This document shows, in pieces, positions 9,103 to 27,776 of a DNA stretch of 64,000 nt. This stretch comes from Tabrizicola soli. GTDB taxonomy: Bacteria; Pseudomonadota; Alphaproteobacteria; Rhodobacterales; Rhodobacteraceae. Below the pieces are notes generated by a model, which saw only the letters and a program-made list of their open reading frames with translations, was not told the DNA's origin and did not search any database. The stretch is taken from positions 124,001 through 188,000 of the forward strand of contig NZ_JAEACP010000001.1 in the NCBI RefSeq assembly GCF_015999335.1, in the 5' to 3' direction. The number at the start of each line of letters is the position of its first letter. Positions within the stretch are counted from its first letter, which is position 1. A program made the position numbers and the translations under genes.

Positions 9103-12859
<3,757 letters not shown>

Positions 12860-13214
12860 GAAGCAGGGCTGCCACGCGTGGACAGGTTTCGAACCCCAGC
12901 AATATCAATGGCCTGGACGTCGCCATTAACGATCTGGCAAGGATCGGGATGGCCAGCGATCCCGCCCGCGCGAGGGCTGCCCTGGTGTGGTTGCGCGGTG
13001 CGCGATCCGGCGGCACTCCGCCGAGCGGAAGCGGCCGGATGGCGTTTTCCGCAGCGCTGGGGTCGATGTCGACGCGGTCATCATCGAAGAGCAGTCGAGA
13101 GATGAGACTTTCCGGCCCCGACGAAATGCACCGATTGATGTCGGATTTCGGTGCGCCGCTACTGGCGGCTGACGAAAAAGGCCAGGATGCCGTCTGTGAG
13201 GGCCGGCCCCCGCG
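12860..13214. other. 355-bp region at the island boundary, no convincing gene
   Basis: Between the convergent ends of pgm (+) and the FAD oxidoreductase gene (-) there is no frame with a recognisable product. Several short frames are open, but none has a ribosome-binding site plus a familiar motif. Small inverted repeats are present (CCACGCGTGG near the start, CGGCGG-CACT-CCGCCG near 13010-13025) without a U-tract. It may be degraded mobile or acquired DNA marking the left end of the island, but I cannot identify it. Confidence 0.3.
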
Positions 13215-14447
13215 TCATTCACCAAATATCGCCTGTTCCAATAGTTCCGCGTTGCGAGGCGCGCTGGTATATTTCCCTGTTGCAACCGAAAAGAAAGTCC
13301 CATTCTGCCGGACCGGCTGCTCATCCCGGCGATGAAAGCCGCTGTCAGGTCTGTCAATGTCGCGCAGCCCATCGGCAAGAATGATTCCTGCCTTGATCAG
13401 CACGGCGTCGGGACGTCCCATGCCCGGAATGATACGGGAAAACCCCTCCAGATTGTCCCGCCAGATCCGCTCCATGGTTTTGCTTTGGATATTCCCGTCG
13501 CAAACCTCTCGCCATTCGCGGGGAATCGCCTGTGATGCGGCCATCCCTTTCAGACTGGCCGGGTACCATGACAGGAAGGCATAATCCCGCCCCGGATGCG
13601 TGACGATGCTGCCAAAGGCGCCATGAACGATCAGAAACGACCCCAGCCTGTCGATCATCGGATTGCGCCGGACCAGAAGGCTGTATTTCAGACGCTGGCT
13701 TTCAGAAGGGAAATCGTCGATTCCGGCCTGACGATCCAACCGGGCGCGATCTTCCCAAAGGCAATTCACCACCATTGACGCCTTCAGATCATGCGACGCC
13801 CCCGCCTCGTCTTTGCAGGCGATGGCCCAACGACCGCCGGATTCGTCCTTGACCCCGCTGACGCAGATGCCAAGGCCAAGCGTGATCCGAGGCTCGGCCC
13901 TGATCGCAGCCGTCAATATCCGGTGCAGGGCGGGTTGATCGACACAGGCTTCGACCGTTTCGAAATTCGCCATGATGTCTGCAGGCGACACATCGGCGGG
14001 AATTGCGGCGCGGCGGGCGACATGGGTCGGCCTTTGACCCAGATAGGAAAGGCGATCATCGCGCAACCCCTCGAGAACCGCCCGTTCGACCTGATGGAAA
14101 TGGTCTTCCAACTGGTCGGCCGACAGATGCGACTCATGATGCACGAGATAACGCGAGCATGTGGAAGATAGCGACGCCCAATCCGGCCTTTGCCTCGAAA
14201 GCCGTTCAACAACCGGGGCAAAGTGCAGCGCATCGGCGGCCATCCGGGCGCTGGTCGAAAAACTGCGATCCATCGCATAGATCAGCCCAAGATGGACCCT
14301 GCCTTCATAATTCAGGCTTGCCCCGGTCATCATTTCGCGGCGGCGGTCAATCAGGGTGACCTTATGCCCCCTTTGGGCCAGCATCAGCGCCGCCAAGACT
14401 CCCTGCACCCCGGCCCCAAGAACAACCGCGCTCACATTTTTCCCCAC
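13215..14447 (-). CDS. FAD-dependent oxidoreductase (DAO family)
   Basis: 410-residue flavoprotein with an N-terminal Rossmann motif GAGVQGVLAALMLAQRGHKVTLID ending in the acidic residue that binds the FAD ribose, so it belongs to the DAO/amine-oxidase-like superfamily. A C-terminal ATGKYTSAPRNAE segment fits the closing FAD loop. The substrate cannot be read from sequence. The start is a GTG at 14447, preceded by GGGG five bases upstream and overlapping the end of the upstream glycosyltransferase gene by 16 bases, so the two are co-translated. It is the most distal gene of the island. It could oxidise an amino sugar, amino acid or peptide side chain, or act as a surface-glycan enzyme; function is not established. 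Confidence 0.7.
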   Translation of the reverse strand: MGKNVSAVVLGAGVQGVLAALMLAQRGHKVTLIDRRREMMTGASLNYEGRVHLGLIYAMDRSFSTSARMAADALHFAPVVERLSRQRPDWASLSSTCSRYLVHHESHLSADQLEDHFHQVERAVLEGLRDDRLSYLGQRPTHVARRAAIPADVSPADIMANFETVEACVDQPALHRILTAAIRAEPRITLGLGICVSGVKDESGGRWAIACKDEAGASHDLKASMVVNCLWEDRARLDRQAGIDDFPSESQRLKYSLLVRRNPMIDRLGSFLIVHGAFGSIVTHPGRDYAFLSWYPASLKGMAASQAIPREWREVCDGNIQSKTMERIWRDNLEGFSRIIPGMGRPDAVLIKAGIILADGLRDIDRPDSGFHRRDEQPVRQNGTFFSVATGKYTSAPRNAELLEQAIFGE

Positions 14448-15343
14448 ATATGCCCCGGCAAGGGGTGGCTGCGCAACGCCTCTGCCTTGGCATCCGGGGC
14501 CGGTTGATAGCGGAACCGGGCCGCCTGGGGCCGGAGTGCCGCAACCGCATTGGCCGCGTTCAAAGCAAGGTCACGGCTTGCGTATTCGATCAGTTCGCCC
14601 GAAGGCAAAAGCGCCTTGGCATAATCGGTCATCAAATCCGCAACATCGGTAAATGCCTTTGGGCTTTTGACCCAGCTGCGGTGGGTGCTTTCCGGGTAAT
14701 ATCGCTTGGTCAGAACAACCGCCGGCACATACCGGAAAGCCCCCGCCAGGCCAAGCGCAAAAAGCCAAGCCCGTTCGGAATGCATCAATCCGGGTGTGGC
14801 GCGAAACCTGAGCGCGTTCTGCTTGGCAAGCGCCGACCGGACCAGCCCCTTGAATGATCCCGGAAATCGCCCTGTCCAGAACATTGGCAGAATATCTTCC
14901 AACACCCAGCGTGACGTGCTGCTACCTTCGGCCAGATTCAATTCGTCACGGTCGGCTATCCGCTGGCCATCAAGTCCGATTGCGATGGTCTGACCAAAGG
15001 CGACAGCCGCGCCGGGGTCCTGCATCAGCACGGCAACAAGGGCCTCGACTCCGGCCTTGTCGATGGAATCGTCGTGGGGTAATATTCGCAGAAATCGCCC
15101 CTGCGCCGCCGAGATCAAGCCCGCGATGTTTTCGACCCAATTCGCATTGTCATCGGAGAGAAGCACCCTGACATTCGCCCTGTTTGCAAACATCCGTAGA
15201 AGGCGCTTACAATAGTCCTTGTCCCCGTTTCGGTCCGACAGGATGATTTCATCCCGGGGATCGACCAAGGCTTCGATATTCGCAACGATGACGTCATGAA
15301 ACCGGGCGGATTTATAAAGCGGGATTAAGTGGCTTACACGCAT
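14432..15343 (-). CDS. Family 2-like glycosyltransferase
   Basis: 303-residue GT-A-fold protein. The N-terminus MRVSHLIPLYKS matches the first strand of GT2 enzymes, DEIILSDRNGD follows, and RFLRILPHDDSIDKAG carries an acidic HDD motif in the position of the metal-binding DxD. There are no membrane segments, so a soluble or peripheral enzyme is likely. I used the ATG at 15343; an in-frame TTG two codons upstream is less likely. It overlaps the FAD oxidoreductase gene and lies 129 bp after the adenylation-carrier-thioesterase gene, a wider gap than any other in the island. Donor and acceptor are unknown. Confidence 0.72.
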   Translation of the reverse strand: MRVSHLIPLYKSARFHDVIVANIEALVDPRDEIILSDRNGDKDYCKRLLRMFANRANVRVLLSDDNANWVENIAGLISAAQGRFLRILPHDDSIDKAGVEALVAVLMQDPGAAVAFGQTIAIGLDGQRIADRDELNLAEGSSTSRWVLEDILPMFWTGRFPGSFKGLVRSALAKQNALRFRATPGLMHSERAWLFALGLAGAFRYVPAVVLTKRYYPESTHRSWVKSPKAFTDVADLMTDYAKALLPSGELIEYASRDLALNAANAVAALRPQAARFRYQPAPDAKAEALRSHPLPGHMWGKM

Positions 15344-15478
15344 TTCCAAGGCCCCATAGTTCGCCTCTCTATTCGGCGCGTCTTCGTCGAGGATGGCGCG
15401 TCGTATCCGCGGGATTCTTCGTAGCCGTTTATGCAGTCTGCCTGATCACGCAGAAACGGTAGGTCTTTCAGATGGTCA

Positions 15479-18280
15479 TTATGAGATCGCATTACCTGAC
15501 TCCGGCAGATCGGCCCATGTGCGAGATTGCGCGGCAGGGGCGAACCAGCCGTATCCTTCCTCGCAGAAACCGATCAGTGCACGCTGACCGGGGCGGGTTC
15601 CCGGCGGCATTTCCATCTTGAGTTCCAGCGTTCCCCCTGGCTCAATCGCGTGCGGCAGCCATACGCTTTGATCCGGCAGCCGCAAAGGACGCTCACAGGT
15701 CTCGGGATCCACCAGATGCAGGGTCACAGCCAGGCCCGTGACCTTGCCCGGCCCCCAACGAACCCGGCCCGGGTTGCCAATCCGGACATGTATCGCGCGA
15801 TTGCCGGGCAGCAAGTTCACGGCAAGTTCGACAGTCCTGAGCGCGGCAGGCACAAGCGGTGCTGGGTCGGTCGTCACGCGGTCGATCTCTTTGCCGATTT
15901 CGGCGGCGAGATGGGCGATCTGATTGCCCGAGAAGAACTCGCCATGTGCCCCCGGGATTTCCCTGCTTTCGATAGCGGGCGTGTAACGCGACCAGGCCTG
16001 CGTGGGCCGCCTGAAATGGAAGACCGGGTTGTGCCTGCGGCTGTCCTTGCCAAAGAGGGCCAGAATGCGTCCGGCATACGGATAGGGCTGCACCTTTTCC
16101 ATGAAGATGAGAGACCCCACGGCAATGCCGCCTTGCCACAGGCAATTCGCGAGATGTTGGGAAATTCGGCCTGCCTGGCAATTGCCACCGACCACGACCA
16201 GCGGGGGAAGGCCATAAGCCTCCAGGCTGCGCAGACAGGTTTCCGCGACAAATCTCTCGATGGCGGGATCGACGTTGCCGGGCGGCAAGATGCCGTTCAG
16301 GGAACGAAAGGCAAGCAGGGGTTGATCAGGCCCCAGTTCCCGGGCGAGGGCATCGGCCTCGCCATAATAGTTGAAGCACCAGATCAGCCATGGCCGGTTG
16401 CCCCTGCCGTTGTAGATCTTGACCAATCCATCGGAATCTATGGTTTCCCCCGTCGCTTGCGCCATAAGCGCAGACAGCTTTTCCAGAAGATCCTGTCGCC
16501 GGCTCTGTTCCTCTTGCGGCGCGGGGGCGATTGGACGCGCTTCACGCCAAAGGCGTTCCGGTGTGGTTTCGGCCGAGAACAGCCCGCGCAACGACAATCG
16601 GAACTGGCGCGCGACCTGCAACTCGATTTCAAGGAGGGTCAGAGAGTCAGCGCCCAGCCTGGCGAGCGTTTCCCGCGGATCTACCTGGGTCTTCAGCGCG
16701 TCGTCCCAGATTGCCAGATAGGACGGGGGCAAACCGACCTCGCCAGACGAAGGAGCCTGTTCAGCCGCCAGCGCATGCAGGCGCGCATTGTCCACCTTGA
16801 AGTTCCCGAGCCGGGGAAGCTTGCCAAGGACCAGGACACGGTCGGGGACAAGATGAGGCGGCAGGTTTGCTGCCATGGCCGCCCTGAGCTGATCCTCGGC
16901 CAAAGGCTGCCGCTCTGTCGCCTCGACGAAGCCAAAGGTGCGGACGCGCTCGCCGTCGGTTTCAACCACCAGCGCGGCTTCGGCCACACCGGGCAGGCGA
17001 CGCAAGGCGGCCTCGATATCGACCGGGTCAAAGCGGTAGCCGCGCACCTTGATCTGGCGGTCGGCACGGCCGCAGAAATCGAGCAGGCCATCCGGGCGCA
17101 AACGGCCGAGATCCCCGGGACGGAAACGCCTCTGGTCTGGATGGTCGGTGCAGGAGGGAAACGCCTGGGCGGTCAGTTCGGGGTCGTTCCAATACCCACG
17201 TGCCATAAAGGCGCTTGTGACCTCGATCTGACCGACCTTCCCGGGTGCGACTTCGGCGCCATCGTCGCCGATCAGCCGCATGTCGCGATCTGCGATGGCA
17301 TGGCCCACCGGAACAAGCGGGGTATCGGGCAGCCAGTTTTCCGGAATGCTCCAGTGCCGGTAGAGCGTCGCACATTCTGTCGAGCCGATCCCGGTATAGA
17401 TTCGGCAACCTGGCGACAGGGATCGCCGCAGATCGGCCAGATCCTGTGCCAGAAACCTGTCGCCCGCCGTATAGACCACTCGCGCAAAAGGGGCGATCCG
17501 TGAGCCGGCCGACCGCATGAGCCCCCGCAGAACCGGCGGCATGGCGTGAAGGATGGTGACCTGCCGCCGGGACAGGTCGGACAGGACCTTTGCCAGCCCT
17601 TCGCCGCGCAGGTCCGCCATGCTGAGCGAAGCGCCATTCAACAAGGCTCCATAGATGTCGCGCAAGGCGCCATTCACGCTGGGCGAGTAGAGCAGACTCG
17701 ATCGGTCGGCAGGGGTGATTGAGATCGCCTGCGAATACTGAAGGACATCATGCATGAGGCCGCGCTGATCCTGCCAGACGCATTTGGGCGCCCCGGTCGA
17801 CCCGGATGTCAGCAGTATGTAGGCCGGGTCATTCGCACCGCCGATCAGGGGAGGGTCCGCCAGCACCGGCAGGGCAACGGCCGACAGTCCGTATGTCCCG
17901 GCGGAAAGGCCGGCCAGCGCGTCCTCCGTCCTGCCGATGACCAGGCGGGCGCCGCAGTGGTCGATGGCACGGCGAAGGGGGGCGAGCGGAAAGCCGGGAT
18001 CCAACGGCAGATAGGGCCGCCCGGTCGCCAGGGCGCCCAGCATTGCCGCCACCACATCGCGACCGGGAGCGAGGAATAGGGCCACGGGCTCGCCCCGCGG
18101 GACCTTGTGCGCGATGACGGCGGCGTATCGGCGCGCCAGCCGGTCCAAGTCCTGATAGGTCATCACGCCGCGATCATCCACAAGCGCGGCCGATTGCGGA
18201 CAGGTGGCGACCACATCGGAGAACCGTGTGTATAGACCGCGTTCGAGGTGGTCGCGGTCAAGCGGCGGCAGGCTGGTCAT
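15479..18280 (-). CDS. NRPS-like adenylation / carrier / thioesterase protein
   Basis: 933 residues in one chain. Adenylation domain about 20-500: core A3 LLTSGSTGAPK (156-166), A5 YTGIGSTE (295-302), A7 RPGDLGRL (387-394) and a variant A10 PRLGNFKVD with Lys495. Carrier domain about 520-580 with LGADSL, Ser546 being the 4'-phosphopantetheine site. Alpha/beta-hydrolase (thioesterase) about 625-800, in which the nucleophile elbow reads G-N-C-Q-A with Cys701 where Ser is usual, plus GAHGEFF with a candidate catalytic His779. A beta-rich tail of about 120 residues follows. The A4 motif reads YSPS, not FDxS, so the amino-group-binding Asp is absent. The ATG at 18280 was chosen because the stop of the upstream gene is 2 bases before it. 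It probably activates and off-loads one acyl or amino-acyl unit. Confidence 0.85.
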   Translation of the reverse strand: MTSLPPLDRDHLERGLYTRFSDVVATCPQSAALVDDRGVMTYQDLDRLARRYAAVIAHKVPRGEPVALFLAPGRDVVAAMLGALATGRPYLPLDPGFPLAPLRRAIDHCGARLVIGRTEDALAGLSAGTYGLSAVALPVLADPPLIGGANDPAYILLTSGSTGAPKCVWQDQRGLMHDVLQYSQAISITPADRSSLLYSPSVNGALRDIYGALLNGASLSMADLRGEGLAKVLSDLSRRQVTILHAMPPVLRGLMRSAGSRIAPFARVVYTAGDRFLAQDLADLRRSLSPGCRIYTGIGSTECATLYRHWSIPENWLPDTPLVPVGHAIADRDMRLIGDDGAEVAPGKVGQIEVTSAFMARGYWNDPELTAQAFPSCTDHPDQRRFRPGDLGRLRPDGLLDFCGRADRQIKVRGYRFDPVDIEAALRRLPGVAEAALVVETDGERVRTFGFVEATERQPLAEDQLRAAMAANLPPHLVPDRVLVLGKLPRLGNFKVDNARLHALAAEQAPSSGEVGLPPSYLAIWDDALKTQVDPRETLARLGADSLTLLEIELQVARQFRLSLRGLFSAETTPERLWREARPIAPAPQEEQSRRQDLLEKLSALMAQATGETIDSDGLVKIYNGRGNRPWLIWCFNYYGEADALARELGPDQPLLAFRSLNGILPPGNVDPAIERFVAETCLRSLEAYGLPPLVVVGGNCQAGRISQHLANCLWQGGIAVGSLIFMEKVQPYPYAGRILALFGKDSRRHNPVFHFRRPTQAWSRYTPAIESREIPGAHGEFFSGNQIAHLAAEIGKEIDRVTTDPAPLVPAALRTVELAVNLLPGNRAIHVRIGNPGRVRWGPGKVTGLAVTLHLVDPETCERPLRLPDQSVWLPHAIEPGGTLELKMEMPPGTRPGQRALIGFCEEGYGWFAPAAQSRTWADLPESGNAIS

Positions 18281-18282
18281 GA

Positions 18283-19278
18283 TCAAGGATCTACCGGGCA
18301 ACGGGCCGCGGCCAGGGCGGCGTGGATGTTCTGGTCCGGCGTGTCGGGTCGCAATACGCAGCCGGCGCCGAGGGTGAATATCCGTCCCCGCATCTGTTCG
18401 CGCAGCGTCCGTGTCGCGGTGATGATTTCGGATACCGTTGCTGTGGCCAGCCAATCTGGACGCGGCCCCGCCGATAAGGAAAGGTCAGGCGCCTTGAGAG
18501 CCTCTGACCACAGGACCGGGTTGTCGTCCGGAGAAAAATGCAAGATCGCTTCGGGGAAGGCGTGGGCAAGCGCGGGGGGATGGTCATGGCCATGCAGATG
18601 AACAAAGTTCAACGCTCCGGGGCCGGTTTCGGCGAGGCACGCCAGATCGTCGGGCAGACCGAGGCGCCAGTAGTCGCCTTCAGGGTCTTCGCCAGCGCCG
18701 GCATGCTGGATGGCCAGGAAGATCCCATCGACACCCGCCTCTCGAAAATCATGGATCAGCCGCTTTGTGCGCGCGCATAGCGCGCTCAGGCCAATGGCGA
18801 CGGCCTCGGGGTGCTCTTGCAGATGGTGGCGCCAAACCCCGCGGCTCAGGGTCCGTGCCTGGAAGAGCGGATCGAATATCGACTGTAGCACCGGAACCTC
18901 GGGCGAGACCCGCGCCCTGATCGCGCGCGCCGCCTGGAGATGTTCCGAGACATGCCGCGCGTTCCGGGACGTTTCCGCAAGGCGGAGCCAGTGTTCCGGC
19001 TGTGTGATCGCAGGCGCGCCGAAGACCCGGCGGCCCAGGCTGTCGCCGGCCCAAGCATCTTCCTGGCCCAGGTCGCGCAGCTGAAAGCTCGAGGCCGGCG
19101 TTATCTTGACAAGATCAGAGCGGAAATCCTGCTGGAACTTGCAGGTCGCCGCGACAAGCGTCTCTGCCCGCTGGTCCGCCACCGGATGATGCCGCCAATA
19201 GGCGACCGGAACGGGGACGTCCATCCTGCCCGATCCGAACCCCGCGACGATGTCCAGAAAATGAGAAACGGCTGCCAT
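18283..19278 (-). CDS. Uroporphyrinogen decarboxylase/corrinoid methyltransferase-like protein
   Basis: 331 residues (348 if the GTG at 19329 is used). It resembles the UROD superfamily, which includes haem-pathway decarboxylases and MtaA/CmuA-type methylcobamide methyltransferases: N-terminal FLDIVAGF...VPVPVAYWRHHP, a central AGVDGIFLAIQHA strand and the C-terminal GAGCVLRPDTPDQNIHAALAAAR closure. Methyltransferase members bind zinc through an H-x-C-G motif; here the equivalent stretch reads HLHG followed by HDH. The ATG at 19278 gives a normal family N-terminus and a 4-base gap from the upstream stop; the GTG would overlap it by 47 bases. It is too divergent for hemE. A role in methyl transfer or decarboxylation of a pathway intermediate is inferred only. 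Confidence 0.7.
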   Translation of the reverse strand: MAAVSHFLDIVAGFGSGRMDVPVPVAYWRHHPVADQRAETLVAATCKFQQDFRSDLVKITPASSFQLRDLGQEDAWAGDSLGRRVFGAPAITQPEHWLRLAETSRNARHVSEHLQAARAIRARVSPEVPVLQSIFDPLFQARTLSRGVWRHHLQEHPEAVAIGLSALCARTKRLIHDFREAGVDGIFLAIQHAGAGEDPEGDYWRLGLPDDLACLAETGPGALNFVHLHGHDHPPALAHAFPEAILHFSPDDNPVLWSEALKAPDLSLSAGPRPDWLATATVSEIITATRTLREQMRGRIFTLGAGCVLRPDTPDQNIHAALAAARCPVDP

Positions 19279-19282
19279 GCCC

Positions 19283-21136
19283 TCAGCCCGAAGGTCGATC
19301 ACTTGTGGCAAGGCGCGTGTCGTTTCCACGGGGGCGCCGCTCCACGAGGGAAAGGCAATCCAGGCCCGTCACGGTGCCCCACGGGATGACCTGCTGAGCG
19401 ATGACTTCGAACCCGTGCCGGTTCGCCATCTCGGCGAGGCGCGCCGCCGACATGGAGGCGCGTCCGTGCGGCCGGTCGTGCATGGCAACCGTGTCGTCGA
19501 ACAGAAAATTGGAATGGTGAAGGAGAGCCAGCCCCCCGTCGCGCAGCACCTGGGCCGTTTCTGCCAGGAAGGTGTCGAGGTTCGTCTCGGGCATCTGGAC
19601 GAGGCAGTCATAGCTGAACAGGCTGTCCACTGTCCCCTCGTCGCACTCCGGCAGGTACTTTTCGTTTGCCGTGCGGCAGGTGACGTTTGCGACGGATTCC
19701 AGCCGGGCCCGCGCATTTGCAGACACATCCGCAGTTGCGGCGATGGCGACGACTTCATGTGCAAGTTCCGCGGCCCGGCCCGCGTGCGCGCCGTCGCCGG
19801 CGAAGAACGCCACCATCCGACCCGGGTCGAGTTTGTCGAACAATGGTCTGAAGCTCCAGGGGCGCTGCCAGAAGATGTGGCTCCAGTCCTGCGGGACAGC
19901 GGACTGATCCAGGTCGGAGGCGGGGTCGTTGGCCGGATCGCGCAGGGCCACCTCGTCAGGAAGCAGCCTTCGGGCCAAGGTGCAAACCGAGTCCACCAGA
20001 TCCGGCACAGGTCTAGCCCGGTTCTTCAGCTGGACGGCAACATCCCTGATGACACAGGCGTCGTCGTATTCGATCACCGGATCGAGAAACAGGAAGTGGT
20101 TATACGCCCGCGCCACCAAAGTGCCAGTGTCATCGGTCATGTTGAAGGCGATGCCGGTATCCGCCATCGCCGCACGCAGTTCATCCCGAAGATCATCAAC
20201 GCCATCGAGAAGAAACTGCTCGATCCTGCTTTCCAGAACAGCCCCGGGCAGGGGCGTTTCGGGAACGGGAGCGTCACGGAAGTCGATGCCAAAGCTGTCG
20301 TGCAGCCAGTCGATTTCGGCACGCGAACAGAAGGAGGCGGCAAGTTCGTCGGGCAGCCTGAACTTTGGTCCGGGTATCGCGGATTGCAGCCAGACATACA
20401 GACGGATCCAGCCCTTCGCCAATCCGGGATGGCCCACGAGCACAGGCAGCCTCACGCGGAGCAGATTGAGCAGCCGGATAGAATCCAGCGAACCTGCGGG
20501 ATTCTCCTGGGTGCCAAGATCCACATGCTCGAGGCCGAACTCGGCCGCGAAATCGGCGACAACCGAGCCTTGCGGAAATCGGCTCAGGTCATAGGCCTTG
20601 AGCTTGAACGCGTCGCTGCCAAATATGGTCTGAAAGGCTTTGAAGTTGTCGCGATATTTAACCGCTCGCTGAAGCCGCGTACCTCTACCTTTCACACATT
20701 GCTGGATGATAGCGCTGGCGAAGGACATCGGGTCACGGACATAGCCAATGACCCGAAGAGAGCCGGACGCGGCAGAAAGGCGCTCCCATAATGCCTGGAT
20801 GCCTGCGCCGTCGAAACTAGACAGCACCTCTCCGGAAAGGATCAGGCGCTTGCGTTCCATTGCAAGTTCGCTTTCCAGCAGCAGGCTATAATGCGCGCGC
20901 GCCGTCTCCTCTTCGCTGGCCGTCTGCCCCAGGAAATTAACCCTACGATTCGCCTCCTGCCCCCTCCCGTCGCCGAAGATCGCGTCGAGGGCGATGGAAT
21001 GGTTGCAATCGCCAAGCCGAGCGTATCGAGTGCCATTGCGATCATAGTTCGCCAATGCCGTCTGGATCGCGGTCGATCCGGTTTTTGGCATGCCGATGTG
21101 CAGGATGATCTCCCGATCGCGCTGGTTCCAAGTCAC
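19283..21136 (-). CDS. Sulfotransferase-methyltransferase fusion protein
   Basis: 617 residues. The first half is a PAPS sulfotransferase-like domain: the 5'-phosphosulfate loop IGMPKTGST (14-22) and the 3'-phosphate motif GYVRDPMSFASAI (131-143). The second half, from about residue 435, looks like a class I SAM methyltransferase with a degenerate motif I (FFAGDGAHAGRAAEL), an acidic strand about 30 residues later, the motif IV-like FSYDCLVQMPE and the LRDGGLALLHHSN strand. The start is a GTG at 21136 with GGAAGGAG 8 bases upstream, 4 bases after the preceding stop. A single chain with both activities would suit sulfation and methylation of one sugar or peptide acceptor. The methyltransferase call is weaker than the sulfotransferase call. 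Confidence 0.75.
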   Translation of the reverse strand: MTWNQRDREIILHIGMPKTGSTAIQTALANYDRNGTRYARLGDCNHSIALDAIFGDGRGQEANRRVNFLGQTASEEETARAHYSLLLESELAMERKRLILSGEVLSSFDGAGIQALWERLSAASGSLRVIGYVRDPMSFASAIIQQCVKGRGTRLQRAVKYRDNFKAFQTIFGSDAFKLKAYDLSRFPQGSVVADFAAEFGLEHVDLGTQENPAGSLDSIRLLNLLRVRLPVLVGHPGLAKGWIRLYVWLQSAIPGPKFRLPDELAASFCSRAEIDWLHDSFGIDFRDAPVPETPLPGAVLESRIEQFLLDGVDDLRDELRAAMADTGIAFNMTDDTGTLVARAYNHFLFLDPVIEYDDACVIRDVAVQLKNRARPVPDLVDSVCTLARRLLPDEVALRDPANDPASDLDQSAVPQDWSHIFWQRPWSFRPLFDKLDPGRMVAFFAGDGAHAGRAAELAHEVVAIAATADVSANARARLESVANVTCRTANEKYLPECDEGTVDSLFSYDCLVQMPETNLDTFLAETAQVLRDGGLALLHHSNFLFDDTVAMHDRPHGRASMSAARLAEMANRHGFEVIAQQVIPWGTVTGLDCLSLVERRPRGNDTRLATSDRPSG

Positions 21137-21140
21137 GCCG

Positions 21141-24100
21141 TCACTCCTTCCCGCTCGGACGACAGCTCGAAGGGCCTCGGGCTATCCGGCCGCAGGCTTC
21201 CGAGAATATCGCCTCGTATTCCCTGACAAGGTGGTCCATGCTGAAAGCATGCGTGGAACGGACCGCGCATGTCCGAGCTGCGGCAAGACGTGCCTCGTCG
21301 GACAGAAGCGCGATCAGCTTCTCACATATTGCATCCGTCATTTCCGCCGGTCGAAGCCGGTGGGAAACGAGTTGATCATCCCCGCCGCCACCGGCTGCGA
21401 TCATCCTTGGGATGGCTCCGATGTCCGTCGCCAATACGGGAATCCCGGCGGCAAAACATTCCAGCAGGAACAGGGGAAAGCTTTCCCCCGCGAAGGTGCT
21501 GGGCAAGACGCCCAGGTCAAAAGCATGCAGCATGCGCCGGGGCTCCTCGATGAAGCCGAGGTGGTAAACCCAGGGCATCGAGCGGATCAGGGGGGAAAGC
21601 CGTGCCACTTCCGGCCCGTCGCCAATCAGAACGATGACAATGTTGCGGGCGCTTGCTTCGCGCGCCTTGCGAACCGCTTCGATCGCAGTTTCCCATCCCT
21701 TTTCCGAAATGGCCCGAGACGCGATGACCAGCGCGAATGCATCTAGCGGAAGGCCCAGTTCGCGGCGAAGCGCATCTCTATCCTGAAGATGGGAATTGCA
21801 TTCCGGCAGCGCATTGAAGATGGGTCTGACCTGGGCGTCCCTTAGGCCCAGCGAGGCAAGCGGGTTCAGGTTCTTTTCGTCGAGATAAAGCCAGTTGGTG
21901 ACATTCCTGCTCAAATACGCGCCGTGGGCGGGTATCTTGTCCGCCACGCTTTCGTATCCACCGTGCAGACTCGCGATCAGCGGCAGGTCGAGTTCGTGAC
22001 CACCGGCCGCCAGCCGCAAGTCCAGGCTGACGTTGTGCGAGTTCAGGACATCAAACCGGAAGGCGCGGAAGAAACCAGCCGGATCGCCCTGGATTTCACG
22101 CCAGCTAACAACCGGGATATCCTTGCGCAATTCCGTCCGGATCGAAGGCGCGCCGATGCGGATCTGATCTTCGACGACCAGATAGGTCACATAGTGGCCT
22201 CTTGCCCGCAGGGCGTTTGCCAGCTGAAGCGGAACCTTCTCGCCCCCGCCGGGCTTGAAACTGTCCGCGCCGATGCAGATCCGCAGGGGCTGGTTCTTCA
22301 GCTTGGCCAAGGGCGCGATCTCGTCCCTGAACAGCATGAGACGTTCTGGCGAAAAGAAGCTGGACAACCGCTGACAATGCGCCTCGATGGCAGTCTGGCC
22401 CAGACCATATTCCGCGGCGATGTCCGAAAGAACCTTGCGATGTTCCGCCAGATGGGTTTCGCCGAAAAGGGATGACCTTGACCGTCCCGTCTCACGAATC
22501 CGGAACTGCGACCGCGCAAGCCGCCGATAGGCAAACTGCCCGCCACGAAGCACCATGGCGTAGAAATACCAGTCTCCGGCAAACCGATAGCTGGTCAGCC
22601 TGTCGCGTTCCGCCTGCGTCAAGACGGGTTTGCGGAAGACCGCCCCGGCCGCATTCGCGATCAGATTGCGCGAGACGAAGTCGTGCTCGAACAGGCGCGC
22701 CGCGGGTAGGGTGGCCGAGCGGTCGCGCGTCAGGTGGTCAAGTCCCTGCCAGTAGTGTTCAAGATCGTCGCGCGACCTGCCGTCGGGTCCGATCGCCTCG
22801 ATACGGCCACAGGCCAGCATGACATCCTCGCGCTGGAAGACGGGCAGCAGATTGGCAAGGAACCCGGAGTCCGCACAATCGTCGGTTTCAGCGATCCAGA
22901 TCAGGTCGTGGCTGGCAGCGTCGATCCCTTTCAGCCACTGGCCGAACACGGAGCCGCTGTTCCTCTCGCCCGCGATGATCCGATAGGGGATATTGCCGCC
23001 TTGAAGGATTTCCGCCGCGATCTTGAGGCTGTCGTCATCCGACCCATCGTCGAGAAAGACGATCTCGTCCGGGGGACGGCTCTGGTTCAGGACCGAAGCC
23101 AGGCGGAGGGGCAGATAGGTCTCGTGGTTGTAGCAGGGCAGAACCGCGGTGACGCGCAGGTCCGCCGGTCGCTGGTGCAGCACGCGCGAAACCGTGTTCA
23201 GATAGGCCGCACCGAAATGGACATCCGGCTCGAGATACGCACCCTCCGCCCATTCGTTCCAGGCATTGATGCACAGCAGCGGTTCGCCCGCCACAGGATG
23301 CGCATTGGCCTCTCGGACGGCCCATTCCAGCCATTGCCGGAACTTTTCGGGGGTCGAGCCTGCGACGGCCGTCCCATGCCCCGGACGCCGGGCCTCGTTG
23401 TCCCATGACGGAAACACCGATCGGATCAACGGCAGTTCGTCACGCGTGTTGTGAATCGCCGCTTCGGTCACATCGTCGTAATCGTAGACCGCGCCGGCAT
23501 GACGGTCGTCCAGAAGATCGAGTTCGGAGGTGACGTCTTGGGCCGTTGCAAAGATCCCATGTGGCGGAAACTCTATGGCGCCGTCCAGCCCAAAGACCGC
23601 CGGATCCTTTTCCCCAAAGGCACGCGCCATGAATATCAGCGGCGCTTCCCCATGACGCAGTTCGAAGAGGTCGCGCCATCGTGCCACCCGGTTCAGGCAA
23701 TCCGGCACATGGCCGGGCCGATAGATGAACCACAGCGGCCGGCCGCCGAGGCGGATATACCGCTCATCCCGGAAATGACGGGCAAGATCGTCGATCAGGG
23801 CCTCGTCGTCTTCCGTCCGGTAACTCTGTTGCAGCAGGACGTCACGTTCCGCGCCATCCCAGGTGCGGGTCCAGTTTTCATTCGCCCACATCAATGCGAA
23901 GGGCATGGCAAGGGTGGGATCGGCCAGAAACCGTTCCATCGGCGTTTCCAGAACCCGCCTGCCGTCGAACCAGTAGTGATAGAAACAGAAACCGTGGATC
24001 CCGGCATCGCGCGCCAGTTCGATTTGCCGACGCATGACACCGCTTTCCGCAAGGTCATAGAAGCCGAGATCCCGAGGCAGACGCGGTTGCAGGTGACCTG

Positions 24101-25544
24101 GAAAGCGCGGCATCCCCCGCGCGACATTGCGCCATTCGGTAAAGCCACGCCCCCAGAAGCGGTCATTTTCCGCAATCGCGTGGTACTGGGGCAGATAATA
24201 GGCCAGCACCTTGGCGCGTGGCGGGGCGTCTCCGGCATCGACCGGGTCGAATTCCTCGAAATATGCCCCGGGTCGTGTGGATGCGGCCTGCTCTGTCAGG
24301 ATGCGCCCCGCCATCTTGACCGGGGCGGCTGTCGGAGCGCCGGACTCGCGCCAGGGCAAGCCTAGGATCTCGGTGCCGCCACAGCGGGGCAGCGCGAGAA
24401 GCGAGCACCCGGCTCGCCGGCCCGCACGCCTCTCATGGCTTCTGGAGGCGATCGCGGAAAACTCTTCGGGCCGCGGCGCATCGGAGGCGAACAGCGCGAT
24501 GTCCAGTTGCTGGTCCGCAAACCATCCCGCAGCCGCCGCGCGGATTTCGGTCAGTTCCCCGTGGTCTATGCAAAAAGCCTCGGCCCGCAGGTACTCCAGC
24601 GCACCATGCTTGCGGTAAAGCGTATCTCGCGCCGCAATGCTGAGCGCGGTCCGCCTTTCATCGGAATAACTCCGGGACCGGCCATGCTGCACAAAGACAT
24701 CGGTGCAGACCCCGGTCCTGTATCCCGCAGCCGTCAGCCGGAAACACAAATCCTGAGTCTCGCCATAGCCTTGGCGGAAGTTCTCCAGATCAAAACCGCC
24801 CACCTCATCGTAAGCGTTGCGTGCGATCATGAAGCAGAACCCGTGCACAAGGGGCAGATCGACAAACCCGTGATCCGCGTGATTTTGCAGAAACCGATTT
24901 ACTGCGCGGAGATCAGTGCCGGCGGGCAGGATATTGGTCGCGTATAATCCCCGCGCGTTTGTGACCCGTCCGAGGCTTTGCCATGCCGCCGCATTCGACA
25001 GCGGACCCGTCAATGCGACACCGGAGCGATGTTCGAACGGATGAGACAGCGCCGCGAGCCAGCCTTCGTCGACCACGGTGTCGCTGTTCAAAACCACGAC
25101 CCGCCCGGCAGTCGAATGCTGGAATCCCAGCGCGGCAGCCCCGGTGAACCCCAGATTCTCTGGCGTGCGGAGGTAGCGCACCAGCCCGTCCTGTTGAGAG
25201 GCCAGCCAGCCCGCTGTCTCGGGCCCGGAGCAATCATCCACCAGCCAGACCCGCCCCAGATTCCCTGTCGCCGTCCGTCGCACGGACGCCAGACAGGCCT
25301 GCACATCGTCCAATGCGTCATGTACAGGCAGAACGATGTCCACCGTCGCCCCGGAAATCCCTTTGCGGCAGCCGCCTGGCGGATCCTGCACGGGCCGCGC
25401 AGCACGCCAGCCCCCCGCCATCATTCCTCCGGCCCTTATCGCCCGCCGGAAGGCCAGAACGGCATCTTGATCCGCCGGAGCGGCGGCGCAAAGCGCAGCC
25501 AGGGATTGCAGGTAGACGGCATGGGCCGCCGTGGCATCAGCCAT
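21141..25544 (-). CDS. Four-domain glycosyltransferase (GT2, WbsX-like, GT2, GT4)
   Basis: 1467 residues. Domain 1 (about 66-330) is GT2: VDIVLPVHDALDD, VWLVDDCS, VVVLNSDTVVD, and a C-terminal YGETQDLCFRLTAAGY. Domain 2 (about 444-792) is WbsX/GH99-like: AYYLPQYHAIAENDRFWG, GFTEW, WANENWTR, and the hallmark NAWNEWAEGAYLEPD. Domain 3 (about 795-1060) is a second GT2: VLPCYNHETYLPLRLASVL, IVFLDDGSDDDS, WIAETDDC. Domain 4 (about 1087-1450) is GT4 with the E-x7-E motif in AGESFPLFLLE. It has no transmembrane segment. The gene overlaps the HExxH gene by 8 bases and is followed 4 bases later by the sulfotransferase fusion. Such chains usually build O-antigen or capsule-like glycans; here it sits in a peptide-modification operon. 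Confidence 0.88.
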   Translation of the reverse strand: MADATAAHAVYLQSLAALCAAAPADQDAVLAFRRAIRAGGMMAGGWRAARPVQDPPGGCRKGISGATVDIVLPVHDALDDVQACLASVRRTATGNLGRVWLVDDCSGPETAGWLASQQDGLVRYLRTPENLGFTGAAALGFQHSTAGRVVVLNSDTVVDEGWLAALSHPFEHRSGVALTGPLSNAAAWQSLGRVTNARGLYATNILPAGTDLRAVNRFLQNHADHGFVDLPLVHGFCFMIARNAYDEVGGFDLENFRQGYGETQDLCFRLTAAGYRTGVCTDVFVQHGRSRSYSDERRTALSIAARDTLYRKHGALEYLRAEAFCIDHGELTEIRAAAAGWFADQQLDIALFASDAPRPEEFSAIASRSHERRAGRRAGCSLLALPRCGGTEILGLPWRESGAPTAAPVKMAGRILTEQAASTRPGAYFEEFDPVDAGDAPPRAKVLAYYLPQYHAIAENDRFWGRGFTEWRNVARGMPRFPGHLQPRLPRDLGFYDLAESGVMRRQIELARDAGIHGFCFYHYWFDGRRVLETPMERFLADPTLAMPFALMWANENWTRTWDGAERDVLLQQSYRTEDDEALIDDLARHFRDERYIRLGGRPLWFIYRPGHVPDCLNRVARWRDLFELRHGEAPLIFMARAFGEKDPAVFGLDGAIEFPPHGIFATAQDVTSELDLLDDRHAGAVYDYDDVTEAAIHNTRDELPLIRSVFPSWDNEARRPGHGTAVAGSTPEKFRQWLEWAVREANAHPVAGEPLLCINAWNEWAEGAYLEPDVHFGAAYLNTVSRVLHQRPADLRVTAVLPCYNHETYLPLRLASVLNQSRPPDEIVFLDDGSDDDSLKIAAEILQGGNIPYRIIAGERNSGSVFGQWLKGIDAASHDLIWIAETDDCADSGFLANLLPVFQREDVMLACGRIEAIGPDGRSRDDLEHYWQGLDHLTRDRSATLPAARLFEHDFVSRNLIANAAGAVFRKPVLTQAERDRLTSYRFAGDWYFYAMVLRGGQFAYRRLARSQFRIRETGRSRSSLFGETHLAEHRKVLSDIAAEYGLGQTAIEAHCQRLSSFFSPERLMLFRDEIAPLAKLKNQPLRICIGADSFKPGGGEKVPLQLANALRARGHYVTYLVVEDQIRIGAPSIRTELRKDIPVVSWREIQGDPAGFFRAFRFDVLNSHNVSLDLRLAAGGHELDLPLIASLHGGYESVADKIPAHGAYLSRNVTNWLYLDEKNLNPLASLGLRDAQVRPIFNALPECNSHLQDRDALRRELGLPLDAFALVIASRAISEKGWETAIEAVRKAREASARNIVIVLIGDGPEVARLSPLIRSMPWVYHLGFIEEPRRMLHAFDLGVLPSTFAGESFPLFLLECFAAGIPVLATDIGAIPRMIAAGGGGDDQLVSHRLRPAEMTDAICEKLIALLSDEARLAAARTCAVRSTHAFSMDHLVREYEAIFSEACGRIARGPSSCRPSGKE

Positions 25545-26538
25545 GATGCAAATCGCGGCTGATACTTTTCGTCAGATCCCGCACAGCCTGTTCAGCATTG
25601 GTGAAGATCGCAAGCCCGGTCGCCGTGAATCTGGCATGCGCGCGAACTACATCCGCGCCTTTTTGAAAGTTCGCGATGTCCTCGTCCCGCAACCGCCGGG
25701 CTTCTTGTCGAATGTCGTCGCCGAGCGTCGCGCTGGTGGCCACACGATGCATCGTCAACGCCATGCGGGCCGAGACATAGGCGGCATGATAGATCCCGTC
25801 CATCGGGCGTGGATCACGTCGGAGCGGCGAGGGGTAGCGGTCGGCTTCCGGGTTGAGAACCAGAGGTTCGTCCGTCGTGAAGCCGAAAAGCAACAGGTGG
25901 CTGGCCTCATGCACCAGAACCTCTGCAACCGCGAGCGGTGTCCGATGAAAGGCCGGGTTCAGGATCAGCATCCCCCAGAGCTGATAGTGGCTGCCCCCAT
26001 CGAAATGCTCGGTTGCCGATTGTGAACCCGTCGCGACCAGCACCTGTTTGACCAGTACAGAGACCTCCGCCGCCATTTCCGGCCAGCACCTGTCAAGAAA
26101 GCCCAGCCCGTCGGCCAGCCTGGTGCGGAACGCCGCGAAGATGGCGGGATCAACCGCATTGAAAAGCGAGGCCACCGAGCCGAAACGGTCGACTGCCATG
26201 TCCTGAAGCAGCGTTTTCGAAGTGTCGGACCAGCGGGTCAGGAAGTGTCGGTCGGCGGCCGTATCCACCGCAAAACCGGAAAGTACGGTACGAACGGTAT
26301 CAACATCTTCGGCCAGCGTCGCGGTGGCGAGCTGATAGTGCCGCGCGTAATCTGATGGCGAGGGGTCGTAGCCCTGTTCCAGCGCAGCGATGAACCCGGC
26401 AAGTTCCTTCACTTCGGGAAAGTCCTGCGGATCGAAGCAATCGATCAGAACACCAAGGCTTTCGCCAAGCTGCGTCCGCATGCGGTCGTCAAGAAGCCGG
26501 GCGCGTTGCGCGGAAGGCTCGATGGAGTAGCTGGGCAT
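25537..26538 (-). CDS. HExxH-motif protein, putative peptide beta-hydroxylase
   Basis: 333 residues. The C-terminal half carries LVHEASHLLLFGF (HExxH at 210-214), followed about 30 residues later by YPSPLRRDPRPMDGIYHAAYVSARM, which supplies a third candidate metal ligand His251 and Arg residues that could bind a co-substrate carboxylate. This spacing and wording match the 'HEXXH motif' proteins associated with peptide-modification systems, some of which are named alpha-ketoglutarate-HExxH peptide beta-hydroxylases. I see no signal peptide, so a secreted protease is less likely. The ATG at 26538 has GGAGG five bases upstream; a GTG at 26553 would overlap the ATP-grasp stop. It is the third gene after the short peptide gene, whose product is the obvious candidate substrate. 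Confidence 0.72.
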   Translation of the reverse strand: MPSYSIEPSAQRARLLDDRMRTQLGESLGVLIDCFDPQDFPEVKELAGFIAALEQGYDPSPSDYARHYQLATATLAEDVDTVRTVLSGFAVDTAADRHFLTRWSDTSKTLLQDMAVDRFGSVASLFNAVDPAIFAAFRTRLADGLGFLDRCWPEMAAEVSVLVKQVLVATGSQSATEHFDGGSHYQLWGMLILNPAFHRTPLAVAEVLVHEASHLLLFGFTTDEPLVLNPEADRYPSPLRRDPRPMDGIYHAAYVSARMALTMHRVATSATLGDDIRQEARRLRDEDIANFQKGADVVRAHARFTATGLAIFTNAEQAVRDLTKSISRDLHHG

Positions 26539-26549
26539 TCGGGCCTCCG

Positions 26550-27602
26550 TCACGGGTTCCGGGCAAGCATTTCGCGAACGGAAAGCGTGGGCACGGGCAT
26601 CGCCTTGCCTTCCTTAAGCTTGGCGAAGGAAGCGCGCAGACGCTGCTCGATATTCTTGTAGACCGGCTCCATGCGACCCAGGTGTTTCTTCGGCACGTTC
26701 GACGGCACGGCCATGGTCATGGCGGCATTCGCCTCGAAAAACACGAAGGATCTGTCGGAACGGACCCCAAGGTCGGCCCCCCAGAAATTCAGGGGACAGC
26801 GCCTGATCATCTCGCCGCAGATGGCACGCAGCTCCATCCAGTTGTGAAAGTCGCGCATTCTTTCGAGCAACTGGTCGATCGACCTTGTGACCCCGGCGCC
26901 GGATGACGGGCTTGTCGCGCCGCCGCTGCCGATTTGCCAGCCGCCAGATACGCCGTATTCGCGCAATGAAATGGTGTCGTCGACAAAGCAGACCCGGATC
27001 TTGACATAACGCCCGCGCTCGTCCTTGAAATCCACGAACTGGGTCATGAAGAATATTCGGCCAAGGCTCGGGAATTGCTCAAGCGGGTCCCAGTCTGCGG
27101 CAGAGCTCACTTTGACGAGACCAATGCCGGTCTGGGAAGATACGGGTCGAACCAGAACCGGGTAGGTGAATCCCTCGCGCTCGAACACTTCCCTGAAAGC
27201 ATCGGTATGAGCTACGGCAAAGCGCGCGACACGGGGCACTTCAAGCCCCTCGATACCGCCGAAGACCTTCGGCGCAAGATCACGCCGGGTCAGGGCGACA
27301 GCACGTGGGTGGTTCCAGATCGGGCATTTCTCGCCGAGGATCGCGTCAAGCTGGGCAAGACTGTCGCGATATTCGTCTATATCCGCCAAAGTATTCACGA
27401 TCCAGCGGTCCGCAAAAGAGGCTGCGAAATCACGATCCGCAAACCAGTATTCGTCCGCGTCGATTGCCAGATCCGACAATACCGGCGCCGGGAGGACGGA
27501 GCGATTCGACCATCGAATGCGAGGCGATCCATCGTTCCCCAAGAACACATCCAATTTCGCCGAATCGGGTATGCCCTTCCAGATCAATCCATCTTCGAGC
27601 AA
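26550..27602 (-). CDS. ATP-grasp enzyme, putative peptide ligase/modifier
   Basis: 350 residues with the ATP-grasp pattern: YPVLVRPVSSQTGIGLVKV (147-165) as the nucleotide-binding strand and flexible loop, with Arg152 in place of the more common Lys; MTQFVDFKDERGRYVKIRV as the central segment; and WGADLGV...FVFFEANAAMTM near 274-296, with Asp277, Glu290 and Asn292 as metal ligands. ATP-grasp enzymes activate a carboxylate as acyl phosphate and join it to an amine, hydroxyl or thiol. It follows the 33-codon peptide gene, with a hairpin between, so the peptide is the likely substrate. The start is a rare TTG at 27602 with GGGAA 8 bases upstream; an in-frame TAG just before it blocks any earlier start. 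Confidence 0.75.
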   Translation of the reverse strand: MLEDGLIWKGIPDSAKLDVFLGNDGSPRIRWSNRSVLPAPVLSDLAIDADEYWFADRDFAASFADRWIVNTLADIDEYRDSLAQLDAILGEKCPIWNHPRAVALTRRDLAPKVFGGIEGLEVPRVARFAVAHTDAFREVFEREGFTYPVLVRPVSSQTGIGLVKVSSAADWDPLEQFPSLGRIFFMTQFVDFKDERGRYVKIRVCFVDDTISLREYGVSGGWQIGSGGATSPSSGAGVTRSIDQLLERMRDFHNWMELRAICGEMIRRCPLNFWGADLGVRSDRSFVFFEANAAMTMAVPSNVPKKHLGRMEPVYKNIEQRLRASFAKLKEGKAMPVPTLSVREMLARNP

Positions 27603-27615
27603 CGTCTAATTCCCA

Positions 27616-27646
27616 TCGCATGCCCTGCATTCCGCAGGGCATGCGA
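27616..27646 (-). terminator. Perfect 13-bp hairpin between peptide gene and ATP-grasp gene
   Basis: TCGCATGCCCTGC (27616-27628) is the exact reverse complement of 27634-27646, with a 5-base loop. In the direction of transcription (-) there is no U-run after the stem, so it is more likely an RNA-processing, stabilising or partial-attenuation structure than a full terminator. It lies 28 bases after the peptide stop codon and 13 bases before the TTG start of the ATP-grasp gene. Confidence 0.75.
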
Positions 27647-27674
27647 AATTCGAACCTATTATCAAGAATGGACC

Positions 27675-27776
27675 TCAGCAGGCGCCGCCACCCTTGACGC
27701 CGATTTTATCAGCCACCGCAGCGCCGCTTTCAAGCTTGAAGCCAAGGAGCTTGGATGTGTCCGGTTTTTTGATCAT
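27675..27776 (-). CDS. Putative RiPP precursor peptide (33 residues)
   Basis: A 33-residue peptide starting MIKKPDTSKLLGFK and ending KIGVKGGGAC, with the Cys as the last residue. The ATG at 27776 is preceded by AGAGGAAC at a good distance (7 bases) and by a candidate promoter, and is the first gene of the minus-strand operon. The N-terminal part is Lys- and Leu-rich and could be the leader; the Gly-rich tail could be the core. I found no named precursor family. The case for a real gene rests on the ribosome-binding site, position, a following hairpin and adjacent ATP-grasp and HExxH genes. The upstream in-frame extension to 27929 has no ribosome-binding site and is not favoured. Confidence 0.72.
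   Translation of the reverse strand: MIKKPDTSKLLGFKLESGAAVADKIGVKGGGAC

What the first reader, a model, noticed from the sequence alone, without database searches (positions are those of the whole stretch)
13215..27776. Hybrid RiPP-like / NRPS-like / glycan operon, possibly an undescribed biosynthetic system
Nine genes on one strand behind a single good promoter: 33-residue peptide, ATP-grasp, HExxH protein, four-domain glycosyltransferase, sulfotransferase-methyltransferase fusion, UROD-like protein, adenylation-carrier-thioesterase protein, GT2 and FAD oxidoreductase. From ATP-grasp to the NRPS-like gene all junctions are overlaps or gaps of a few bases (11 at most). The island is visibly less GC-extreme than the flanking housekeeping genes. 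I know no named pathway with this set. A peptide that is hydroxylated, then glycosylated, sulfated, methylated and acylated is one reading; a surface glycan carrying a peptide is another.
Basis: partly seen in the sequence, partly recalled or inferred. Interest (0 to 1): 0.9.

Follow-up and report, generated by a model that had tools for sequence, protein, structure and literature searches.

The report
Modified-peptide operon with decoration genes
A 15-kb gene island in a proteobacterium encodes a tiny peptide from a widespread, apparently unnamed family of enzymatically modified peptides, together with enzymes that probably hydroxylate it, attach an acid to it and decorate it further, a combination for which no description was found.

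Summary
The nine genes are real and tightly packed, in a 15.2-kb island (12860-28040) absent from the four same-genus genomes fetched. The 33-aa peptide belongs to a RiPP precursor family found beside alphaKG-HExxH hydroxylases in 59 of 80 loci: leader about "LD.[ST]KLLGF[KR]", core repeats "K-h-G". In 72 of 80 loci an ATP-dependent carboxylate-activating enzyme lies within 5 kb, and the three main kinds never overlap: a LysX/RimK-like ATP-grasp (49), a larger ATP-grasp (14), thioesterase/adenylation genes related to the window's (8); one more has an adenylation gene alone. The window has a divergent ATP-grasp plus an adenylation-carrier-Cys-thioesterase (A-T-TE) protein. The same genome carries a second peptide copy (91% identical; dN 0.06, dS 1.55) beside a sulfotransferase-like gene and the genome's only other match to that thioesterase, which supports the peptide/NRPS-like link. 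The glycosyltransferase link rests on position only: no relative has the window's GT protein, and the UROD-like/A-T-TE pair stands alone in two other genomes. Best reading: a RiPP hydroxylated and acylated near its K-h-G motif, then probably glycosylated, sulfated and methylated. New variant of a known kind; not found in the literature searched.

The parts
12860..28040 (.). Island between two conserved flanking segments; four same-genus genomes have 164 bp to 4.1 kb there, without DNA similarity to the island
   Evidence: Left homology ends at 12859-12866 in 4 of 4 relatives fetched and right homology begins at 28039-28045; in two of the four (L198, L199) the right segment is inverted. Flanks found in 31 of 31 and 30 of 31 same-genus genomes, own included
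27675..27776 (-). Precursor peptide, 33 aa, MIKKPDTSKLLGFKLESGAAVADKIGVKGGGAC; leader KLLGFK, core K-I-G
   Evidence: paralog on contig C26 with dN 0.062, dS 1.55
27616..27646 (-). RNA hairpin (13-bp stem, 5-nt loop) between peptide and ATP-grasp genes
   Evidence: strand folding -30.7 kcal/mol, z -3.95, 0 of 200 shuffles as good; the paralog is followed by a weaker hairpin of other sequence (z -1.95, 11 of 200)
26550..27602 (-). ATP-grasp ligase, divergent from the usual partner of this HExxH clade
   Evidence: Profile hit LysX 3vpd E 3.6e-6; model pLDDT 67.4, Foldseek D-Ala-D-Ala ligase, ArgX, RimK, PsnB; hhalign to the usual partner family 98.4%
25537..26553 (-). alphaKG-HExxH-type peptide beta-hydroxylase (HEASH)
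   Evidence: TIGR04267 110 bits; alignment matches ChlH 8s5f E 4.9e-10; tree places it inside the type I clade
21141..25544 (-). Four-domain glycosyltransferase: GT2, WbsX, GT2, GT4
   Evidence: Pfam
19283..21136 (-). Sulfotransferase-like + SAM methyltransferase fusion
   Evidence: Methyltransf_25 E 3.7e-7; N-terminal part 45% identical to the gene after the second peptide; sulfotransferase motif recalled
18283..19278 (-). UROD/MtaA-superfamily protein (H-x-H and C at the MtaA zinc-ligand positions, ligands recalled)
   Evidence: Pfam URO-D E 3.6e-5, just under the cut-off; MtaA 4ay7 E 0.0046; start from orthologs
15479..18280 (-). Adenylation - carrier - Cys-thioesterase protein with an unassigned C-terminal stretch
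   Evidence: Pfam/NCBIfam; GGNCQ motif; A4 motif VNGAL; start chosen; C-terminal piece no Pfam hit
14432..15349 (-). GT2 glycosyltransferase
   Evidence: PF00535 E 8.2e-8
13215..14447 (-). FAD-dependent oxidoreductase (DAO type)
   Evidence: PF01266 E 1.8e-12

Best explanation
The island makes a ribosomally made, modified peptide. The leader (..KLLGFKL) recruits the enzymes. The HExxH protein hydroxylates a residue in or next to the core motif ADKIGVKGG. An ATP-dependent ligase then joins an outside carboxylic acid to the peptide, most likely at the K-h-G lysine or its new hydroxyl. In most relatives one ATP-grasp does this; in others a larger ATP-grasp or an adenylation/thioesterase set takes its place. 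Here there are two such activities, an ATP-grasp and an A-T-TE protein whose adenylation domain lacks the usual Asp for an alpha-amino group (role of that Asp recalled). The remaining enzymes (four-domain GT, GT2, sulfotransferase-methyltransferase, MtaA-like protein, FAD oxidoreductase) most likely decorate the same peptide or the acid that it receives. Shown: gene content, homology, island boundaries, precursor family, mutual exclusion of ligase kinds, second peptide beside a second A-T-TE gene. Inferred: every reaction, its order and its site, and that the GTs act on the peptide.
For: Precursors with the same leader beside HExxH in 59 of 80 loci, 45 of 50 with the usual ATP-grasp; the same model on 23 loci without HExxH finds at E<0.5 only the second peptide. 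K-x-G 183 times in 55 cores, shuffles 51 +/- 6, maximum 69 of 500. A ligase gene within 5 kb in 72 of 80 loci; the three main kinds never overlap (49, 14, 8). Window HExxH nests among ATP-grasp-partnered enzymes (98/90). Usual ATP-grasp model pLDDT 93.6, best matches ArgX/LysX, then RimK and D-Ala ligases; that ArgX, LysX and RimK act on peptide or protein substrates is recalled. Two peptides and two matches to the A-T-TE thioesterase at E 1e-5 in the genome, both paired; sulfotransferase-like gene at both loci. Among 196 genomes of the order, 4 of the 14 thioesterase matches outside the own genome lie within 3 kb of an HExxH gene (G010, G062, G093, G109). Whole set in one island slot.
Against: No relative has the window's GT protein. 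UROD-like + A-T-TE occur as a stand-alone pair in G024 and G115. Other A-T-TE relatives (L173-L176, L178, L179) and thioesterase relatives (L180, L181) show no precursor by the leader model, so these modules have a life of their own; 10 of the 14 matches outside the own genome are not near HExxH. The window's ATP-grasp is not the usual partner (usual-partner profile gives -0.0 bits), and its closest relatives found (L051, L204, L205) have no HExxH nearby. No protease or exporter was recognised in the island. The second locus lacks HExxH and ATP-grasp. Of the 8 loci with the thioesterase, the leader model finds a precursor in 1 only; the type II precursors that I name (L068, L070, L071) were picked by eye. 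Eight of 80 loci show no ligase within 5 kb.
Confidence: 0.55

Rival explanations
1. Two systems side by side: a peptide/ATP-grasp/HExxH RiPP unit, and an unrelated glycan-decoration unit (GTs, ST-MT, UROD-like + A-T-TE, GT2, FAD) that shares the island and transcript only by history.
For: UROD-like + A-T-TE is a stand-alone pair elsewhere; a relative of the A-T-TE lies beside a protein like the window's GT2-WbsX part (43% over 731 aa, L178); no HExxH relative carries the window's GT protein.
Against: The second peptide copy also sits beside a sulfotransferase-like gene and an A-T-TE gene, of a different architecture; relatives of the thioesterase lie within 5 kb of HExxH in 8 of 80 loci; overlapping start and stop codons join HExxH to GT.
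Confidence: 0.28
2. The peptide is a carrier or primer: an LysW-like small protein on which an amino acid or glycan is built and then released, not itself the product.
For: Nearest folds of the usual partner are ArgX and LysX/ArgX, two of the entries being complexes with the carrier protein LysW; the thioesterase could release or transfer the acid; the C-terminus GG[GS]AC is nearly fixed between the two copies.
Against: Many family members have repeated K-h-G motifs and no common C-terminus, as cores rather than carriers do; HExxH relatives of known function modify peptide residues (PMC12636437, first of six parts read; PMC13060819, passages).
Confidence: 0.1
3. A graspetide: the ATP-grasp closes side-chain ester or amide rings between Asp/Glu and Ser/Thr/Lys of the core, and HExxH hydroxylates it.
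For: ATP-grasp beside a precursor is the graspetide layout; PsnB is among the fold matches of the window's enzyme (rank 45, with the same E-value as RimK); the window core has one Glu and one Asp.
Against: 5 of 55 family cores have no Asp/Glu at all and 19 have at most one; in other loci the ligase is replaced by adenylation/thioesterase genes, which load outside acids; ArgX/LysX and RimK rank first for the usual partner.
Confidence: 0.07

Closest known systems
alphaKG-HExxH peptide beta-hydroxylases (ChlH, BpmH, PflC/PosC, PesO)
   Same: HExxH domain over the NCBIfam cut-off; SPxRxDxRPxxGxxHA block shared with ChlH; beside small precursor genes
   Different: No radical SAM or MNIO protein among the Pfam hits of the island; partner is a ligase; precursor leader and K-h-G core are unlike the Gln-ARMD (Pfl) and R(V/T)DN (Pes) cores in the passages read
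RimK / LysX / ArgX ATP-grasp ligases
   Same: ATP-grasp fold; conserved C-terminal acidic/Asn residues; peptide or protein substrates (recalled)
   Different: Low identity in the structure matches (about 13-18%); sits in a RiPP locus; substrate unknown
Graspetides (PsnB, microviridins)
   Same: ATP-grasp next to a precursor gene
   Different: Cores poor in Asp/Glu, lysine-rich K-h-G repeats; ligase interchangeable with non-ATP-grasp genes
NRPS A-T-TE proteins with a Cys thioesterase (ObiF type, recalled)
   Same: Adenylation, carrier and thioesterase domains, Cys in place of Ser at the nucleophile
   Different: No condensation domain; A4 motif VNGAL instead of FD; paired with an MtaA-like protein
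Mycofactocin (RiPP glycosylated by MftF, recalled)
   Same: A RiPP with a GT2-type glycosyltransferase in its operon; the window GT hits MftF at 104 bits
   Different: Below the curated cut-off of 280 bits, so GT2 likeness only; no radical SAM gene recognised

Membership tests
alphaKG-HExxH peptide beta-hydroxylase | Score over the curated NCBIfam cut-off with intact HExxH | tested here: met
   110 bits against 40; HEASH at residues 215-219
alphaKG-HExxH peptide beta-hydroxylase | Homology to a solved member | tested here: met
   ChlH 8s5f E 4.9e-10 with the family alignment
alphaKG-HExxH peptide beta-hydroxylase | Hydroxylates a peptide residue with Fe(II) and alphaKG | not testable with these tools
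   Needs enzymology
RiPP | Genetically encoded precursor with conserved leader and variable core next to modifying enzymes | tested here: met
   59 of 80 loci; window peptide and its paralog under purifying selection
RiPP | Core is modified and released | not testable with these tools
   No protease recognised in the island; needs mass spectrometry
Graspetide | Acidic donors and hydroxyl/amine acceptors in the core for side-chain rings | tested here: inconclusive
   Window core has E16 and D23; 5 of 55 related cores have none
Graspetide | ATP-grasp of the graspetide synthetase clade | tested here: inconclusive
   By profile LysX (E 3.6e-6) ranks above 5ig9 (E 0.017, microviridin-type by recall) and 7drm/PsnB (E 0.37); by fold many D-Ala ligases and ArgX rank above PsnB, and RimK ties with it. 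No clade tree was made
Modular NRPS | Condensation domains that make peptide bonds | tested here: not met
   Only AMP-binding, AMP-binding_C and PP-binding by Pfam in the protein
O-antigen/capsule locus | Lipid-carrier transferase and flippase/polymerase or ABC exporter genes | tested here: not met
   None among the Pfam hits of the eight large island proteins; elsewhere in the genome not searched
UroD (heme decarboxylase) | Match over the Pfam cut-off and nearest solved relative a UroD | tested here: not met
   23.4 bits against 23.9; the only PDB match at E 0.01 is the methyltransferase MtaA

The most novel reading that the evidence does not exclude
A previously unnamed, phylum-crossing RiPP class whose K-h-G lysines are hydroxylated by HExxH enzymes and then acylated by one of several unrelated, swappable carboxylate ligases (two or three ATP-grasp kinds, or an adenylation/carrier/Cys-thioesterase set). 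The window is its most elaborate member, a true RiPP-NRPS-glycan hybrid with two ligase systems on one 33-residue precursor, and a second precursor copy in the same genome is modified in trans and finished by a different cassette.
Probability: 0.35. Interest if true: 0.88.

Novelty: new variant of a known kind. Interest (0 to 1): 0.7.

Why it matters
RiPP and NRPS-like acyl chemistry are rarely joined on one peptide (recalled). The mutual exclusion of ligase kinds beside one hydroxylase family is a natural experiment that hints at what the ligases do (activate an outside acid) without knowing the product. None of nine precursors tested has an NCBIfam match and my searches found the family nowhere in print, so such small genes are probably often missed by annotation. 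Minimal three-gene loci make the chemistry testable by co-expression in E. coli.

Tried and rejected
Direct search of genome contigs with the window's ATP-grasp: 36 pattern matches, no relative. The same protein in 244 (order), 289 (class) and 394 (family) genomes, overlapping sets, matched in 12, 17 and 4 genomes, own included. I fetched wide neighbourhoods of 12 other genomes; HExxH was in none of the 12, the rest were not looked at. NCBIfam on 9 precursors and one ATP-grasp: no family. Plasmids: 7 records with distant HExxH proteins (22-30% identity), not followed. tRNA as island anchor: none in the window. Sigma-70 promoter: none found. Substrate of the adenylation domain: only the A4 position was read; no specificity code derived. 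Modular NRPS, UroD and O-antigen locus were considered and rejected as memberships; graspetide stays open (Membership tests). Literature: (listings). Three papers hold ATP-grasp, HExxH and RiPP together, none on such a locus judging by title and start of abstract. Most subscription journals are not in that library.

Limits of the counts: one search kept the best 80 of 93 relatives; many are from MAGs, so the non-proteobacterial hosts may be binning errors. The set of 14 includes truncated or distant matches (L104, L112; L130, L145; weakest L098). Eight of 80 loci show no ligase within 5 kb: L093 has one at 5.5 kb; L129, L133 and L141 are contigs of 4-9 kb; L083, L134, L149 and L150 are unexplained. 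In the 8 thioesterase loci the adenylation motif was read in all, the CQ motif was printed for 6 (not for L132 and the fragment L148), and carrier domains were not checked; the separate carrier gene is from L068, which is not among the 80. Where adenylation genes overlap with the ATP-grasp sets was not computed.
Full report
What is there. The region 13215-27776 holds nine minus-strand genes in the order peptide, ATP-grasp, HExxH protein, four-domain glycosyltransferase, sulfotransferase-methyltransferase, UROD-like protein, adenylation-carrier-thioesterase protein (A-T-TE), GT2, FAD oxidoreductase. Junctions from ATP-grasp to A-T-TE are overlaps of 4 and 8 bases or gaps of 4, 4 and 2 bases. 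GC is 62.0% against 68.6 and 67.8% outside. No sigma-70-like promoter was found upstream of the peptide. A stable hairpin lies between the peptide and the ATP-grasp gene (13-bp stem, z -3.95).

The island. The flanks are conserved in the genus: the HNH gene in 30 of 31 genomes and the left flank in 31 of 31, own genome included. In the four relatives that I fetched (of 30 other genomes searched), homology to the left flank ends at 12859-12866 and homology to the right flank begins at 28039-28045. Between them lie 164 bp, 2.0, 2.4 and 4.1 kb without DNA similarity to the island, instead of 15.2 kb. In two of the four (L198, L199) the right segment is turned round, so the slot is rearranged there. 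The nine genes thus sit in one variable slot. The HExxH family was not found in the four same-genus genomes.

The peptide is a real precursor. In 9 of 11 HExxH loci from the same order, short ORFs seen by eye share the leader K[LM]LG[FY] followed by K[MIV]G motifs (6 loci), or a shorter variant with K-V-G (3 loci). A wider scan kept 80 loci, most from alpha-, beta- and gammaproteobacteria. An iterated leader model found same-strand precursors near HExxH in 59 of 80. The same model run on 21 loci without HExxH found at E below 0.5 only one hit, the second peptide described below, and none in two more. In 55 distinct cores of loci with the usual ATP-grasp, K-x-G occurs 183 times against 51 +/- 6 in shuffled cores. 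None of the nine precursors tested matches an NCBIfam family.

The ligase swap. Beside HExxH stands, in 49 of 80 loci within 5 kb, an ATP-grasp without a Pfam match (tested on two members) whose model (pLDDT 93.6) is nearest to ArgX and LysX, then RimK and D-Ala ligases, at fold level only (TM-score at most 0.58 over the query). In 14 it is a different, larger ATP-grasp protein, about 620 aa in the seven tested (Pfam). In 8 it is a relative of the window's thioesterase with an adenylation domain in the same or a neighbouring gene. One locus (L151) has an adenylation gene alone. The three main sets do not overlap; eight loci have none within 5 kb. I infer that these enzymes fill one role: activating an outside carboxylic acid and joining it to the peptide. 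Five of 55 cores have no Asp or Glu, so ring closure inside the core cannot be the reaction in those five.

Where the window belongs. Its HExxH protein nests among the ATP-grasp-partnered enzymes, sister to a clade of ATP-grasp-partnered ones that includes the rhodobacterial members (98/90), on a long branch. It scores 110 bits against a cut-off of 40 for TIGR04267, and the family alignment matches ChlH. The window's own ATP-grasp is not the usual partner: the usual-partner profile scores it at -0.0 bits, though profile-profile comparison relates the two families (98.4%). Its closest relatives found have no HExxH near. The usual partner seems to have been replaced.

The NRPS-like part. The A-T-TE protein has a carrier motif GADSL and a Cys in place of Ser at the thioesterase nucleophile (GGNCQ; a CQ motif was printed for 25 of 29 related rows, some of them the same gene). 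It has VNGAL where the aligned LgrA domain has FDGSA, so the acid may lack an alpha-amino group (role of that Asp recalled). It forms a two-gene unit with the UROD-like protein in two genomes of another genus (48-54% identity over the two proteins), with none of the other island genes within about 10 kb. The UROD-like protein's only solved relative at E 0.01 is the methyltransferase MtaA; His and Cys stand at the positions that I recall as zinc ligands.

A second peptide. The own genome has exactly two matches to the peptide and exactly two, at E 1e-5, to the thioesterase region, and they are paired. On contig C26 the peptide MIRKPDTSKLLGFKLNSGAAVADKIGVKGGSAC is followed by a short ORF that begins like the window's ATP-grasp (LFENGLIWKSLP against LLEDGLIWKGIP), a protein 45% identical to the window's sulfotransferase-like part, a Sulfotransfer_3-DUF218 protein, and a Mur ligase-A-T-TE protein. 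Neither HExxH nor the window-type ATP-grasp has a second match. This is the best evidence that peptide, sulfotransferase and A-T-TE chemistry belong together, and it suggests that the second peptide is modified in trans. Against it, the other loci with such genes that I fetched (L173-L176, L178-L181; four of them, L173, L175, L176 and L179, with the same N-terminus as the C26 protein by eye) show no precursor.

What stays open. No relative links the window's glycosyltransferases to such a peptide; only position does. The modified residue, the acid and the order of steps are inferred. In print: alphaKG-HExxH enzymes are known to hydroxylate RiPP precursors and, for PflC and PosC, to cleave the backbone (PMC12636437: first of six parts and found passages; PMC13060819: passages). 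In a survey of graspetide loci the terms hydroxylase, glycosyltransferase, AMP-binding and adenylation do not occur in the main text (PMC8939145, term search only). Of six sequence strings searched none occurs in the library, and I saw no paper on an ATP-grasp/HExxH locus (listings).

Verdict. A real, coherent and unusual biosynthetic island; its RiPP core belongs to an apparently undescribed precursor family, its NRPS-like part is probably linked, its glycan part possibly. Overall interest 0.7.

Noticed in passing
window 27616-27646: 13-bp RNA hairpin directly after the peptide gene; the second peptide (L177, 2975-2997) is followed by a hairpin of different sequence at a similar place, less exceptional against shuffles (z -1.95). 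Could set the ratio of precursor to enzyme transcripts.
   Followed up: partly
L150 11387-12166 (-): An ORF with the same leader (YSKLLGF) and an AKVG core that runs on into a segment resembling a Hint/hedgehog-type autoprocessing domain (recalled resemblance), as if the precursor cut itself.
   Followed up: no
L134 5327-9772 (-): A 1481-aa Ig-like/RTX protein carries the leader-like stretch LQFDPARLLGF at its N-terminus, beside an HExxH gene: a large secreted protein may be the substrate.
   Followed up: no
L204 8434-10403 and L205 8242-10271: Two tandem copies of the window-type ATP-grasp beside a ~295-aa gene, without HExxH: possibly another peptide system.
   Followed up: no
L061 8250-10300 (and L076): Histidinibacterium lentulum has at least six different precursors with the same leader before one HExxH gene (one search lists six, its maximum).
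   Followed up: no
L173, L175, L176, L179: Recurring pair of a DUF218-like protein and a 1280-1330-aa protein whose ends resemble the Mur ligase-adenylation-carrier-thioesterase protein of L177 (by eye and tblastn), product unknown.
   Followed up: no
window 12859-28041: The slot between the left flank and the HNH gene holds 2.0-4.1 kb of other DNA in three relatives (contents not compared) and 164 bp in a fourth, with the HNH segment inverted in two: a variable site without a tRNA in the window.
   Followed up: partly
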